From Marinomonas sp. SBI8L (GTDB lineage Bacteria; Pseudomonadota; Gammaproteobacteria; Pseudomonadales; Marinomonadaceae): a DNA stretch of 64,000 bases. Where the stretch lies: assembly GCF_001624705.1 (NCBI RefSeq), contig NZ_JSEO01000003.1:186001-250000 (forward strand), written 5' to 3'. Under the pieces are notes generated by a model. The model was not told where the DNA came from. It made no database searches and saw nothing but the letters and a program-made list of their open reading frames with translations. Shown here piece after piece: positions 31,309 through 38,449 of the stretch. A program made the position numbers and the translations under genes. How positions within the stretch are numbered: position 1 is the stretch's first letter; each line of letters starts with the position of its first letter.

Positions 31309-32664
31309 ATGCCAACAATATCAGAGTTAGCATCTGCAAAAGCAGGTTTAAAAGCACCAAGTACCCAGCGTATTGCACCGACGATTGTTCCTGAAATGTC
31401 GATTCCACAAATTATTGACTCTTTAAATAGTGATGTGGCATCTAAAAAGAGAAAAGTCATTGAGCGACTTAGTCAGGATAAATACCTCACTCAGGGGTAC
31501 CCATTATTAAATAGAGAAGCTTATACAAATGCGGTAAATCTTCTGCAAGAAAAAATCGCTAGTCATGATGGCAGTATTTGTAAGAAGTTTTTAACCATGT
31601 TTGGTCCCTATGTTGATATCGAAGCCGATAGAAAAATTCTACAGCTATTAACTGACCCAAACGCGTATCAAAAATATGTTTCTGAGGGGACTCTTCAACG
31701 GGAGAAAAGAGGGTGGTCTGGTGAGAGTGTCATTAAAGATAAAAAGGGAACAGAAAAGACAGTTAAAGATTCAAGTTTGAAATTCAAAGACAAGAGTGAT
31801 GTTGCTAATACAAAATATAAACTGAAAATTTTATTCATGCAGTTTGAAAGGATGAAAGTGGCTCAATCTGAGTTACTGACTTTATGCAAAGAGGTTTCCT
31901 CTTTGTTCAATGGCAAGCTATCCACGCCACCAGGTGCCTTCCATGGTTTAAAAAGCTTTAGTGGTGCGTTAGATAAAATAACCAATAGGGAGAGGTCATC
32001 AGATTTTGGAGATTTAAAAGATGTTGCTCGAATGACGGTTGAGTTTGAAGATGAGCATGCGATGAACTTGGCCAGAGCATATTTAGAAGATGGAAAAGAG
32101 TTTGAGCAAATAAAAGGTTATGCCAAAGCCCTAAAAAACAGGTATGGCACTTCGGAGAAAGGTTCGGTTCATAATAGCAAAGCGTTGAAATCAGGTTATC
32201 AAGATATCAAATTTTTCCTTAAATTGAGTAACGGTATTATTGGCGAACTTCAGCTGAACACTAAAGGTATGTTGATAGCGAAAGAAAAAGAGCATCTTAT
32301 TTATGACCTAACACGTGCAGCCCCTAAGGGGACAGAGAAGGGCGCGGGTTTTACGCTGAATAATAAAGAAGATTTACTCGATCACCTAGTGCATAAGTTG
32401 AATGATGAGTGGTTTGTATTCGTTGGTCAAAGAGCGCCAAAGACACTCACTAAACTTTATACCATGAAGGCGATGATGGCTCGCATGGCCAAAAGGCCAG
32501 TAAAAGGAAGTTTTACTGTATTAAAACAAGAAGTGGAGGCTATGAACGTTATTAGTCGTCTTATGTATACACAGATAGGTAAAGGAGAGGGCGTTAAACT
32601 TGGAACGAGTATTCCTCAATCAGGATCAACCTTTAGTAAGGTATCTCGTTATTTCTTCTCATAA
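31309..32664 (+). CDS. RelA/SpoT-synthetase-like protein, copy 1 (function unknown)
   Basis: A 451-aa soluble protein with no signal peptide or membrane segment. Residues 210-335 resemble a RelA/SpoT nucleotidyltransferase domain: GLKSFSGALDKITNRE (compare RxKSxxSxxxK), GDLKDVARMTVEF (compare DxxGxR; Asp238, Arg241), KSGYQDIKFF (compare GYxSxH) and GELQLNTKG (compare ExQxRT; Glu313, Gln315). The N-terminal half (about 45-130, LTQGYPLLN…VDIEADRKILQLLTD) is unknown to me. A strong AAAAGGAG precedes ATG 31309. It has a diverged paralogue directly downstream. Whether it makes (p)ppGpp or another nucleotide is open. Confidence 0.6.
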   Translation: MPTISELASAKAGLKAPSTQRIAPTIVPEMSIPQIIDSLNSDVASKKRKVIERLSQDKYLTQGYPLLNREAYTNAVNLLQEKIASHDGSICKKFLTMFGPYVDIEADRKILQLLTDPNAYQKYVSEGTLQREKRGWSGESVIKDKKGTEKTVKDSSLKFKDKSDVANTKYKLKILFMQFERMKVAQSELLTLCKEVSSLFNGKLSTPPGAFHGLKSFSGALDKITNRERSSDFGDLKDVARMTVEFEDEHAMNLARAYLEDGKEFEQIKGYAKALKNRYGTSEKGSVHNSKALKSGYQDIKFFLKLSNGIIGELQLNTKGMLIAKEKEHLIYDLTRAAPKGTEKGAGFTLNNKEDLLDHLVHKLNDEWFVFVGQRAPKTLTKLYTMKAMMARMAKRPVKGSFTVLKQEVEAMNVISRLMYTQIGKGEGVKLGTSIPQSGSTFSKVSRYFFS

Positions 32665-32933
32665 GTTAGATTGTCGCTCACCCTAAATGTGGTGAGCTTC
32701 TCTGTTTCTTTTCGTGTCAGCATGCATCTCTTGTTACAAAATCCCCTAGTTAAACTTCTGCTTCTTTGGTTAACTGCACATTTAATCCATAAACTTCTAA
32801 TACAATGAAAATGGGCAAGTTTATCAAGCATTTCTAATGGTTAGCTTAGTGCTGAATAAATGAAACTTAGCCAAATTGAGTCAGATTTAATTCAAGGATA
32901 GCAGGTAACTGCGAGTAATAAGGGCAGCCAATT

Positions 32934-34280
32934 ATGACGATTACTAGTAGTGTATTGGCCTCGCAAAAAGAGGACGCGCTACAGCAAAAACTGAATGCCT
33001 CCATGCGAAAAAAGTACTCAGGGCAAAGGGCTTATTTGAAGAAAAAGTCTCCTGAGGAATTGATTAAGCAGTCTCTGAGATTAGATGAGATAGAGGTGGC
33101 TGCGCGTAAAAGTCACGGCAAAGTAATGAAGCGTTTAGATTTAAGTACTCATCTTAGCCAAGGCTACCCTTTGCTGAACCAAGATGCTTATGCTGCTGCG
33201 GTGAAAATGCTGCAAGAAAAAATTCGTGGCCATGACAATAGCGTCTGTGCCAGATGGTTGTCGCTTTTTGGTCCCCACGTCGATATTGAAGCAGATCGAA
33301 AAATTCTCATTATGTTGACGGATCCAAGTGCCATTGAGAACTATGTGCCAGAGGAAACTCGTAAACGCTTAAAAGAAGGTTATGCGCTTACTAGCCGTGA
33401 TAGGCGCCATGTTGCCAATACTAAGTTCAAAATGAAATCTCTTTTCATGCAGTTTGAGCGAATGAAACTGGCTCAAGCCCAACTAGTCTCCCTTTCAAAG
33501 GATTTGGCTGCTGAGTTTCATGGCCGCATCTCTTGCCCTCCTGGCGCATTCCAGGGTCTTAAAAGCTTTAATGGCGCGCTTGATAAAATTACCAATCGAG
33601 AAAGAGAGTCTGACTTTGGCGACCTAAAAGATATCGCTAGAATGACGGTCGAATTTGATAATGAATTTGATATGAATATGGCCCGTCAAAAGGTAGAAGG
33701 CAGTGATGAATTTAAAAAAATTCGTCAATATGCCAAATCTCTAAAGAACCGTTATGGAACTTCTTCTAGTGGGGATGAAAGTGATCCACATAATTCTGGC
33801 GCACTTAAGTCTGGTTACCAAGATATTAAGTTCTTCTTGCCAATGGATAACGGCATAATTGGGGAGCTTCAGCTTAATACCAAAGGTATGTTAGTCGCTA
33901 AGGCCAAGGAACATTTGATTTACGATTTAATGCGAGCTGCGCCAAAAGGCACGGTGAATGGCTCAGGCTTTACCGTTAATAATCCTGATGTACTAAAGCC
34001 AGTCATGAATAAAATGAATGATGACTGGTTTAAGTTCGTTGGTACTAAGGCGCCTATGACACGGCAGTACCTAATCACAATGCGTATTATGATTGCCAGA
34101 CTGGTAAAAAACCAAGGACGCTCTTTAACGATAACCAAAGCGGAAGTAGCAGCAATGAGTGCCGTGAGTAAACTCATGTATGCTCAAATTGGTAAAGGCC
34201 ATAATATCCCAAAATCGGGTTCTAATCCGCCCGAATCAATTTCTATGTATCGACGCATTTGTAACTACTTCTTTTCTTAA
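32934..34280 (+). CDS. RelA/SpoT-synthetase-like protein, copy 2 (function unknown)
   Basis: A 448-aa paralogue of the preceding gene; most residues in the last 300 positions agree by eye. The same motifs recur: GLKSFNGALDKITNRE (Lys210, Lys218), GDLKDIARMTVEF (Asp233, Arg236), KSGYQDIKFF (294-295) and GELQLNTKG (Glu311, Gln313). Both copies end in YFFS. The extreme N-terminus (1-60) differs and is rich in Lys and Glu, suggesting separate partners or regulation. A 269-bp spacer separates the copies, so each may have its own promoter. No partner antitoxin-size gene is adjacent. Confidence 0.6.
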   Translation: MTITSSVLASQKEDALQQKLNASMRKKYSGQRAYLKKKSPEELIKQSLRLDEIEVAARKSHGKVMKRLDLSTHLSQGYPLLNQDAYAAAVKMLQEKIRGHDNSVCARWLSLFGPHVDIEADRKILIMLTDPSAIENYVPEETRKRLKEGYALTSRDRRHVANTKFKMKSLFMQFERMKLAQAQLVSLSKDLAAEFHGRISCPPGAFQGLKSFNGALDKITNRERESDFGDLKDIARMTVEFDNEFDMNMARQKVEGSDEFKKIRQYAKSLKNRYGTSSSGDESDPHNSGALKSGYQDIKFFLPMDNGIIGELQLNTKGMLVAKAKEHLIYDLMRAAPKGTVNGSGFTVNNPDVLKPVMNKMNDDWFKFVGTKAPMTRQYLITMRIMIARLVKNQGRSLTITKAEVAAMSAVSKLMYAQIGKGHNIPKSGSNPPESISMYRRICNYFFS

Positions 34281-37168: not shown

Positions 37169-38449
37169 TTACTCTGTGATAAGGGACAGTTTGCTTTTTA
37201 ACTGATGATAAGCTTGGCTTTGGCGATCCTCTGGTTGGCATAGGCTTAACATGTCGTCAATAAAGTAGTTTAACGCGCGCCTTTCTATCGCTTGGATACC
37301 AGATTGCTGATAGCCCTCAAGCATCTGATATTTTGATGCAGCGCCGAAGTCACCAAATAAAATATCGCCTTGATGGTTGATAAGTACATTGTGAGCATAC
37401 AGGTCACCATGGCTGACTTTGTATTCAATTAGATGATCCACTAAACTTTCTAGCTGCTGTACTATGTGTTCAATCTGTTTGATACTAAAGCTTTGACCCT
37501 GAGTAAATGTGTCACGAGTGCAGGTTTCAAGGCTAGGTGGCTGACCTAAATTTATATAGTCCGTTGGAATGAGCTCCATCACAAGGGCGGAGCAGTCAGC
37601 TTCTTTAATTTGAGCTAAGGGTTTTACAAGGTTAGGATGCAATCCTGTTGATAGGCAGGCATCCAATTCGTCTTCTGGGTAACCATCACTGGTCACTTCA
37701 CCTTTAAACACCTTAATGGCTACTTCATTTGGAAGATGGTTCTCACTAGAGTTGGTGGCTCTATAGATAACACCAGAGGCTCCTTTGCCTAAAACTTCAT
37801 AGAAACTAAATGTGTCTCTTTTAAGTATTTTAATTCTGTCTTCAATGGCAGAGGTCTCACAAAAAGGATTACCTGCAAAAGCTAGCCAAGCAAGTTTTGG
37901 TAAATCAAGTAGGGCATCTGGAAAGGATGTTAATGCATTAGCTGATAAACGAATTAGTCCTAATTTATGACAATTAGAAATAGATTGAGGTATATAAGTT
38001 AGCTGGTTTCCGGATAAAGCAAGCTTTTCTAGATTATTAAGTTGACCTAACTTCTCTGGCAATTCTGCGATTTTATTATCAGTCAAAATTAACCAGCGAG
38101 TTTGTAATGGTAATGAGCTTGCTGGTACTTGGGTAATCTTATTCGATTTAAAGCCTATCATCTCAAGATTTTGACAAAGAGATAGCATGGGAGGAAGACA
38201 AGTAAATTCATTATTTGAACAAAATAGAATCTTTAGCTTCTTCAATCTATTGAGATCTTGGGGTAATTCACTTAGTTGATTGTTGGATAGATCCAGTACT
38301 TCGAGGCTATCAGCTAGGTCAAAAATTTCAGCTGGAAATTGGCTAAGGTTCTCACTCAGGTTTAAGCGAACTGTACCCTTAAGTTCACCATTTTTTAATT
38401 GCTTTAGCGTCTGCACTCTAACTTCCCATGATAATTGTTGGCGCATCAT
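37169..38449 (-). CDS. Leucine-rich-repeat protein kinase
   Basis: A fusion of leucine-rich repeats and a eukaryotic-type protein kinase, 426 aa, no membrane segment. About seven LRRs span residues 25-200 (repeats of LxxLxLSxNQLxxLP). The kinase begins near 215: Gly loop VLGKGASGVIYR (220-230), Lys246 (AIKVF), catalytic HGDLYAHNVLI (His347, Asp349, Asn354) and DFGAAS (Asp367). HGD replaces the usual HRD. Residues needed for catalysis look intact. The C-terminal lobe is short. The target is unknown. Confidence 0.85.
   Translation of the reverse strand: MMRQQLSWEVRVQTLKQLKNGELKGTVRLNLSENLSQFPAEIFDLADSLEVLDLSNNQLSELPQDLNRLKKLKILFCSNNEFTCLPPMLSLCQNLEMIGFKSNKITQVPASSLPLQTRWLILTDNKIAELPEKLGQLNNLEKLALSGNQLTYIPQSISNCHKLGLIRLSANALTSFPDALLDLPKLAWLAFAGNPFCETSAIEDRIKILKRDTFSFYEVLGKGASGVIYRATNSSENHLPNEVAIKVFKGEVTSDGYPEDELDACLSTGLHPNLVKPLAQIKEADCSALVMELIPTDYINLGQPPSLETCTRDTFTQGQSFSIKQIEHIVQQLESLVDHLIEYKVSHGDLYAHNVLINHQGDILFGDFGAASKYQMLEGYQQSGIQAIERRALNYFIDDMLSLCQPEDRQSQAYHQLKSKLSLITE

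What the first reader, a model, noticed from the sequence alone, without database searches (positions are those of the whole stretch)
31309..34280. Tandem paralogous RelA/SpoT-like proteins with unknown N-terminal domains
Two neighbouring genes of 451 and 448 codons share most of their last 300 residues. In both, residues about 210-335 line up with the RelA/SpoT synthetase pattern: LKS..GALDKI, DLKD(V/I)ARMTVEF, KSGYQDIK and ELQLNT. No hydrolase, TGS or ACT domain is seen, and the 200-residue N-terminal half is unfamiliar. Small alarmone synthetases are usually about 200-250 aa. These could be alarmone or (p)ppApp-type enzymes, toxins or secreted effectors. The assignment rests on motif reading only.
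Basis: partly seen in the sequence, partly recalled or inferred. Interest (0 to 1): 0.7.

Follow-up and report, generated by a model that had tools for sequence, protein, structure and literature searches.

The report
Alarmone-synthetase-like type VI secretion cargo pair
Two neighbouring genes of a marine bacterium encode proteins built around what looks like the enzyme fold that makes bacterial alarm nucleotides, and relatives elsewhere sit inside the gene clusters of a molecular injection machine, so they are probably injected enzymes, unusual in having no recognisable protective gene beside them.

Summary
Observation confirmed: two tandem ORFs (451 and 448 aa), 56% identical over 430 aligned columns, alike along most of their length, in a Marinomonas genome with a third paralog. 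A RelA/SpoT synthetase domain is supported by: the third paralog's match to Pfam RelA_SpoT (E 3e-5, just under the cut-off); Tas1/Apk1, a type VI (T6SS) (p)ppApp synthetase, as sole PDB hit of the family profile (E 0.005, 0.003); a phage-bridged profile whose 14 PDB hits are all alarmone synthetases, Tas1 at 9e-16; a low-confidence model whose 50 listed PDB matches are all of this fold; and invariant catalytic D, R, E and Q. Against: A and B themselves miss PF04607, and the family did not match the genome's own RelA/SpoT. New is the context: of 16 bacterial family genes examined, A and B included, 8 lie inside T6SS clusters, and none has a recognisable immunity gene in its flanking gaps. Best reading: orphan T6SS cargo effectors with an alarmone-synthetase domain and an N-terminal part of unknown function. 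Product, export and target are not shown. New variant of a known kind.

The parts
31309..32664 (+). Gene A, 451 aa: RelA/SpoT-like synthetase protein
   Evidence: relatives
31309..31908 (+). A residues 1-200: N-terminal part of unknown function; residues about 40-200 are shared by the family
   Evidence: Pfam: nothing over its cut-off; 23-59% identity to the other ten members of A4 over A residues 40-200
31921..32343 (+). A residues 205-345: RelA/SpoT-type synthetase (SYNTH) domain. K215, K223, D238, R241, K276, Y297, E313, Q315, H329, Y332 and R336 are invariant in the 11-member alignment A4
   Evidence: residue roles from PMC12691689
32344..32661 (+). A residues 346-451: C-terminal tail, mostly predicted helix
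   Evidence: AlphaFold model, which covers A residues 155-435 only; no Pfam hit at E 1
32934..34280 (+). Gene B, 448 aa: tandem paralog of A
32934..33518 (+). B residues 1-195: N-terminal part, partly alike to A's (53% over A residues 40-200)
33531..33962 (+). B residues 200-343: synthetase domain, 74% identical to A's
33963..34277 (+). B residues 344-448: C-terminal tail
32665..32933 (.). 269-bp gap between A and B; longest ORFs 60 aa (-) and 45 aa (+), so no recognisable immunity gene; one weak terminator-like hairpin at 32676-32697 (3 such hits in the scanned stretch, 3.3 expected by shuffling)

Best explanation
A and B are orphan type VI secretion cargo effectors. Their C-terminal two thirds carry a RelA/SpoT-type pyrophosphokinase (SYNTH) domain of the Tas1/Apk1 kind, which moves the beta-gamma pyrophosphate of ATP to the 3'-OH of an acceptor nucleotide (GTP/GDP or ATP/ADP) and so floods or drains the recipient's purine pool. 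The N-terminal ~200 residues would serve for loading on the VgrG/PAAR spike or for holding the enzyme inactive in the producer. Shown: homology of the domain, intact key residues, purifying selection, and the T6SS-cluster location of relatives, including the closest relatives of the genome's third paralog. Inferred: catalysis, acceptor, export of A and B themselves, role of the N-terminal part, target cell.
For: Domain: third paralog (L006) hits PF04607 at E 3.3e-5, 24.6 bits against a cut-off of 27. Family profile against PDB gives a single hit, Tas1 6OX6, E 0.0052 with 7 rows and 0.0032 with 11 rows. A4 vs phage relatives 98.3%, P 2e-14; the phage protein of PHB04 passes PF04607 with 30.6 bits. 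A6 profile (A, B, L007 + 15 phage rows) vs PDB: Tas1 9.3e-16, all 14 hits at E<=10 are alarmone synthetases. AlphaFold model of A 155-435: the 50 listed of 316 Foldseek hits are all alarmone or tRNA-pyrophosphokinase synthetases, best SaEAS 8VX3 E 1.8e-4, Tas1 2.7e-3. Unrelated control: A4 vs a DUF6931 alignment 0.1%. Residues: D238, R241, E313, Q315 correspond to D121/R124/E182/Q184 of SaEAS, with the D-x-x-R spacing of Tas1 and SaEAS; in the genome's RelA and SpoT I read D-x4-R by eye. T6SS: in 3 genomes RSH-vgrG-DUF6931-PAAR beside tssM; in 5 more (4 Marinomonas, Vibrio THAF190c) a distant RSH gene sits between PAAR and tssA; A4 vs that cargo (2 rows) 98.4%. Tree: the third paralog pair groups with the three spike-operon genes (100/99). 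Own genome and MED121 each have three TssC-family genes at two places; at one of them each has VgrG-DUF6931-PAAR-TssA with no RSH in between.
Against: Of the 16 genes, 8 lie outside T6SS clusters in the stretches held: A, B, their two MED121 orthologs, the third-paralog pair, the Vibrio THAF191d gene and one G584 gene. No T6SS targeting domain was found in Pfam; MIX, FIX and RIX were not tested as such. No immunity gene in the gaps at any of 16 genes, unlike Tas1/Tis1. A and B alone do not match PF04607. A4 vs own RelA/SpoT: 0.4%, with cargo rows 0.6%. The structure model is weak (pLDDT 63, pTM 0.56; best hit TM 0.42 by query length) and leans on phage rows. Asn370 of Apk1 is a lysine (K301) here; the counterpart of Lys353 is not settled by the alignments. 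With 13 rows the PDB search also lists an unrelated protein, Shroom, at E 0.035. The T6SS link is by neighbourhood only.
Confidence: 0.6

Rival explanations
1. Intracellular alarmone synthetases: large stress-response enzymes in which the N-terminal part is a sensor that controls (p)ppGpp or (p)ppApp synthesis in the producer itself; no export.
For: A, B and the third paralog have no T6SS genes in the stretches held around them and no immunity gene in their gaps; B and the third paralog lie at the same place in MED121. A (p)ppGpp product could be cleared by the genome's SpoT (established knowledge).
Against: The nearest homologs of the third paralog sit in spike operons; the distribution is patchy, 2 of 49 Marinomonas genomes with close relatives plus one with a distant cargo gene, 6 of 49 with the wide profile, unlike a housekeeping regulator; the nearest solved structures are exported or toxic enzymes.
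Confidence: 0.22
2. Anti-eukaryotic effectors of another route (type III secretion): the genome has a likely non-flagellar T3SS, and alarmone-synthetase-like domains occur in XopAD-type T3SS effectors.
For: SctC over its cut-off in G000; XopAD link stated in PMC12691689, section 9 read.
Against: MED121 carries all three family genes but no SctC over cut-off (its genome is 96% complete); three other Marinomonas with SctC over cut-off (G009, G018, G020) lack close relatives of A and B; the T6SS links of relatives are direct.
Confidence: 0.07
3. toxSAS of a toxin-antitoxin module or fused phage-defence protein (CapRel-like), pyrophosphorylating tRNA or ATP, with the N-terminal part as built-in antitoxin.
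For: Same fold; Foldseek lists CapRel among the hits.
Against: No antitoxin-sized ORF over 71 aa in the gaps at 16 of 16 genes, though shorter ORFs exist; PADLOC finds nothing in A or B; D-x-x-R spacing is that of Tas1/SaEAS, while in FaRel2 the adenine-binding R95 follows the catalytic D90 by five (passages).
Confidence: 0.06
4. Catalytically dead or repurposed SYNTH fold, for example a structural adaptor of the spike.
For: Only four catalytic positions can be equated with confidence; Asn370 of Apk1 is replaced by Lys.
Against: All four are invariant in the 13-member alignment together with K276, Y297, H329, Y332 and R336; strong purifying selection in the catalytic part of B; the own T6SS cluster lacks an RSH gene at that place, so it is not an obligatory part.
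Confidence: 0.05

Closest known systems
Tas1/Apk1 of Pseudomonas aeruginosa (PDB 6OX6), T6SS (p)ppApp synthetase effector
   Same: SYNTH domain with the same D-x-x-R, GY and GE[LI]Q[LV]N motifs; T6SS association of family members; only PDB hit of the family profile
   Different: Tas1 has the immunity protein Tis1 (passages); here no immunity gene was found in the gaps. These have their own N-terminal part without a PAAR match. Asn370 is K301 here.
Exported alarmone synthetases (EAS: SaEAS 8VX3, VpEAS, AaEAS; PMC12691689)
   Same: Best structural match is SaEAS; same D, R, E, Q; SaEAS and VpEAS loci also lack immunity genes
   Different: SaEAS and VpEAS carry Sec signal peptides and AaEAS an LXG domain; by eye A and B have no hydrophobic N-terminal segment. 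That paper's survey lists Rhs/PAAR-domain proteins for T6SS; free-standing cargo genes of this kind are not described in the sections I read.
Phage RelA_SpoT-domain proteins (Bordetella phage PHB04 and IMG/VR relatives)
   Same: Synthetase core alignable at 98.3% hhalign probability
   Different: Different N-terminal part; in PHB04, the only one whose neighbours I looked at, the gene follows the portal gene
Long RelA/SpoT and small alarmone synthetases (YjbM, YwaC, RelP)
   Same: Fold and general motif order
   Different: No HD/TGS/ACT; D-x4-R in the own RelA and SpoT by eye instead of D-x-x-R; direct profile match to own RelA/SpoT not significant

Membership tests
RelA/SpoT homolog (RSH) synthetase superfamily | Homology to SYNTH domains by profile | tested here: met
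   Third paralog E 3.3e-5 to PF04607 though 2.4 bits under the curated cut-off; family profile to Tas1 E 0.003-0.005; bridged profile 9e-16, 14 of 14 hits RSH. Results against: A and B alone miss PF04607; own RelA/SpoT not matched
RelA/SpoT homolog (RSH) synthetase superfamily | SYNTH fold | tested here: inconclusive
   The 50 listed of 316 Foldseek hits are all RSH-type synthetases, but the model has pLDDT 63 and the best hit TM 0.42/0.55
RelA/SpoT homolog (RSH) synthetase superfamily | Catalytic Asp and ATP-site Arg, Glu, Gln | tested here: met
   D238, R241, E313, Q315 invariant in 13 of 13. Of two further ATP-site residues named for Apk1, Asn370 is Lys here and the counterpart of Lys353 is unsettled
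Tas1/Apk1-like exported alarmone synthetases | Linked to a secretion system or carrying an export signal | tested here: inconclusive
   Family: 8 of 16 genes in T6SS clusters. A and B themselves: no T6SS gene matched in the window, no known export domain
Tas1/Apk1-like exported alarmone synthetases | Nucleotide 3'-pyrophosphokinase activity | not testable with these tools
   needs biochemistry
T6SS antibacterial effector-immunity pair (as Tas1-Tis1) | Immunity gene adjacent | tested here: not met
   16 of 16 genes: no ORF over 71 aa in the gaps on either side; the larger neighbouring genes were not tested for immunity function
T6SS cargo effector | T6SS-dependent secretion | not testable with these tools
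   needs a tssM or hcp mutant assay
Toxin-antitoxin toxSAS | Adjacent or fused antitoxin | tested here: not met
   a fused N-terminal antitoxin of unknown kind is not excluded
Long RSH (RelA/SpoT) | HD, TGS and ACT/RRM domains | tested here: not met

The most novel reading that the evidence does not exclude
A lineage of T6SS-delivered alarmone synthetases that needs no immunity protein, because the enzyme is held inactive by its own N-terminal part until delivery, or because its prey are eukaryotic grazers or competitors lacking an alarmone hydrolase; in marine bacteria it has escaped its spike operon and multiplied as orphan tandem copies.
Probability: 0.35. Interest if true: 0.75.

Novelty: new variant of a known kind. 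Interest (0 to 1): 0.52.

Why it matters
The one characterised T6SS alarmone synthetase named in the text I read, Tas1/Apk1, comes with an immunity protein. A spike-operon family without a recognisable one, with a shared N-terminal part, makes testable how a producer survives a nucleotide-draining enzyme and whether alarmone synthesis is used against eukaryotes. It also extends the exported alarmone synthetase idea of 2025 to free-standing T6SS cargo in marine Gammaproteobacteria.

Tried and rejected
AlphaFold on full-length A with only B and the MED121 ortholog of B gave pLDDT 43 and was not used. Viral scan with the close family only: 74 stretches matched a pattern, none a relative; with the third paralog as query no phage record matched. 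T3SS route: weakened by MED121 lacking SctC over cut-off. Defence-system reading: PADLOC gave nothing for 4 of 5 proteins (A, B, third paralog, L047 cargo) and one 16.6-bit hit in L048 (PDC-M08B, E 0.0022), not followed. NCBIfam gave nothing for A or B; PHROGs only hits at E 0.03 or worse. Weak Pfam hits to DUF357, C2_TCB1, BAG, Dpoe2NT and Allexi_40kDa were all under cut-off and judged chance. Direct hhalign of the family against the own RelA/SpoT pair failed; it is reported as a result against. Paper searches: 'alarmone synthetase' + 'type VI secretion' + Marinomonas, 0 papers; DUF6931 + 'type VI secretion', 0 papers; some searches were seen as listings. Of single papers I saw: PMC12691689 abstract, introduction, sections 5, 6, 9 and passages; PMC11782079 passages; PMC10435454 passages. 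The RIX motif was not tested. Class sampling: 1 of 369 genomes, the own one, by single sequence; 4 of 369 by the profile, the three others weak (E 4.6e-6, 0.0016, 0.0088) and not followed. These three, and two further Vibrio records with the same match figures as THAF191d (THAF191c and THAF64), are not among the 16 genes counted. In one search two gene ends were set wrongly (PAAR in L038 and L102) and a 67-aa ORF served as the neighbour in L050; one search gives the right PAAR ends, and in L050 the next larger frames (136 aa on the other strand, 140 aa overlapping it) lie over 600 bp off, with only 31- and 67-aa ORFs between.
Full report
What is there. Gene A (31309-32664, 451 aa) and gene B (32934-34280, 448 aa) are adjacent on the + strand, 269 bp apart, and identical in 240 of 430 aligned columns, 56%. 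The likeness covers most of the N-terminal half too: 53% over A residues 40-200, 74% over 201-345, 50% over 346-425. The window is part of a 5.2-Mb genome, G000. G036, which the tool places in the same genus, has a contig of exactly the length of the Marinomonas sp. MED121 record, so I take the genome to be a Marinomonas. G000 holds a third paralog (C2:87997-88800, 392-aa frame, 40% identical to A over residues 156-427). MED121 has orthologs of all three; B and the third paralog keep their neighbours, the ortholog of A lies elsewhere. B against its MED121 ortholog has pS 0.757 and pN 0.061, the third-paralog pair 0.787 and 0.115, A against its ortholog 0.698 and 0.294: selection on the proteins is purifying, weakest in A.

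Is it a RelA/SpoT synthetase? A and B alone do not match PF04607, and of the 11 full-length relatives (alignment A4) only 2 do at E<=0.1, the better being the genome's third paralog (E 3.3e-5, 24.6 bits, cut-off 27). The family profile has one hit in the whole PDB at E<=10, Tas1 (E 0.0052 with 7 rows; 0.0032 with 11 rows); with two T6SS cargo rows added Tas1 stays first (0.0038) and an unrelated protein, Shroom, appears at 0.035. The family aligns to phage proteins at 98.3%, and a profile of A, B, L007 and 15 phage rows hits Tas1 at 9.3e-16; all 14 hits up to E 10 are alarmone synthetases. 13 of those 18 rows match PF04607 at E<=0.01; the three bacterial rows do not, so the strength of that result leans on the phage rows. 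The phage profile reaches the genome's RelA/SpoT pair at 71%, whereas the family itself does not (0.4%; 0.6% with cargo rows). An unrelated control alignment gave 0.1%. The second AlphaFold model (A residues 155-435) has pLDDT 63 and pTM 0.56; there were 316 PDB matches at E<=10, and the best 50, which are listed, are all alarmone or tRNA-pyrophosphokinase synthetases, led by the exported synthetase SaEAS (E 1.8e-4; Tas1 2.7e-3). Taken together I put the SYNTH assignment at about 0.93.

Active site. PMC12691689 (abstract, introduction, sections 5, 6, 9 and passages seen) gives the ATP-site residues of SaEAS/Apk1 as R124/R330, E182/E382, Q184, N169/N370, K154/K353, and D121 as the residue whose change inactivates SaEAS. 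The profile alignment (chain numbers plus 21 give the paper's numbers, my count) equates A R241 with R330, E313 with E382, Q315 with the Gln two residues on, and D238 with the Asp three before R330. All four are invariant in 13 of 13 aligned bacterial proteins. Asn370 is K301 here, and the counterpart of Lys353 is not settled; K276 is invariant nearby. The Asp-to-Arg spacing of three is that of Tas1 and SaEAS; in the genome's own RelA and SpoT I read five by eye, and in FaRel2 it is five (D90, R95, passages).

Context: T6SS genes. Pfam confirms the partners in L048, and tblastn with the L048 proteins finds them in L049 and L050. Four Marinomonas genomes (G009, G020, G028, G043) and Vibrio sp. 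THAF190c carry a more distant RSH gene (346-373 aa) between PAAR and tssA, in the order vgrG-DUF6931-PAAR-RSH-tssA-hcp-tssB-tssC, 5 of 5. The family matches that cargo (two rows) at 98.4%. G000 and MED121 have the same kind of T6SS cluster, but with no RSH between PAAR and tssA. So the synthetase looks like an accessory of this spike, sometimes inside the cluster, sometimes orphan. In the tree of 11 rows the third paralog of G000/MED121 groups with the spike-operon genes of G584/G440/G463 (100/99); A, B and their orthologs are split from the other seven (100/100). The program warns of long branches, among them the Vibrio gene, the second G584 gene and the MED121 ortholog of A. Thus A and B themselves are tied to the T6SS only through the family.

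No immunity gene. Sixteen bacterial genes were examined: the 11 of A4 and the 5 PAAR-tssA cargo genes. In the gaps on either side the longest ORF outside neighbouring genes is 71 aa (corrected), and the five PAAR-tssA genes are packed with gaps of 25-28 bp to PAAR and 14-26 bp to tssA. Larger neighbours were not tested for immunity function. Tas1 has Tis1; SaEAS and VpEAS have no immunity gene and are kept harmless by Sec export. By eye A and B have no signal peptide; no predictor was run.

Distribution. Single-sequence search: 3 of 49 Marinomonas, of which one is only a distant cargo gene; wide profile: 6 of 49; 1 of 369 genomes of the class, the own one, and 4 of 369 with the first profile, three of them weak. 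In the plasmid collection A finds three Vibrio records and the third paralog four, the fourth being THAF190c. A finds one phage, present as two records; the third paralog finds none. The PHB04 gene follows the portal gene.

Mechanism. Most likely A and B load on a VgrG-PAAR spike, enter a neighbouring cell and transfer pyrophosphate from ATP to a purine nucleotide. The acceptor cannot be read from sequence. How the producer protects itself is open: an N-terminal self-inhibitory part, an activator found only in the target, hydrolysis of a (p)ppGpp product by SpoT, or a eukaryotic target. The T3SS of G000 is an unlikely route because MED121 has the genes without an SctC over cut-off.

Known or new. 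It belongs, by homology, with Tas1/Apk1 and the exported alarmone synthetases, but as free-standing T6SS cargo without a recognisable immunity gene and with its own N-terminal part it is a new variant. 

Noticed in passing
L013 4020-6285 (Bordetella phage PHB04): A RelA_SpoT-domain protein is encoded right after the portal gene; one small gene further on lies a 192-aa gene annotated as bifunctional (p)ppGpp synthetase/hydrolase that by eye looks like a small HD-type hydrolase: a possible phage synthetase-hydrolase pair. Relatives of the first protein occur in IMG/VR contigs; their neighbours were not looked at.
   Followed up: partly
G000 C9:104027-112306 (L023, L028, L034): The genome carries a likely non-flagellar type III secretion system: SctC over cut-off, as in 4 of 49 Marinomonas genomes, and an ATPase of that kind nearby, under its own cut-off.
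   Followed up: partly
window 37169-38449 (-): Leucine-rich repeats fused to a protein-kinase domain; by eye a like protein is encoded in MED121 (L007 10035-11273).
   Followed up: no
G000 C67 (L065), G036 C5 (L069), L101-L103: T6SS clusters with two neighbouring TssC-family genes, the second only 23-25% identical to a TssC query that the first matches at about 85% or more.
   Followed up: no
L038, L047, L101, L102, L103 cargo genes: These PAAR-tssA cargo proteins share an extra C-terminal block of about 60 residues that A and B lack (aligned for L047 and L038, by eye for the others).
   Followed up: no
DUF6931 genes of L038, L047, L048, L049, L050, L101, L102, L103: A DUF6931 (PF22011) gene lies between vgrG and PAAR in 8 of 8 T6SS loci (Pfam for L047, L048, L050); it may be a spike adaptor or chaperone. 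The search DUF6931 + type VI secretion found no open-access paper.
   Followed up: partly
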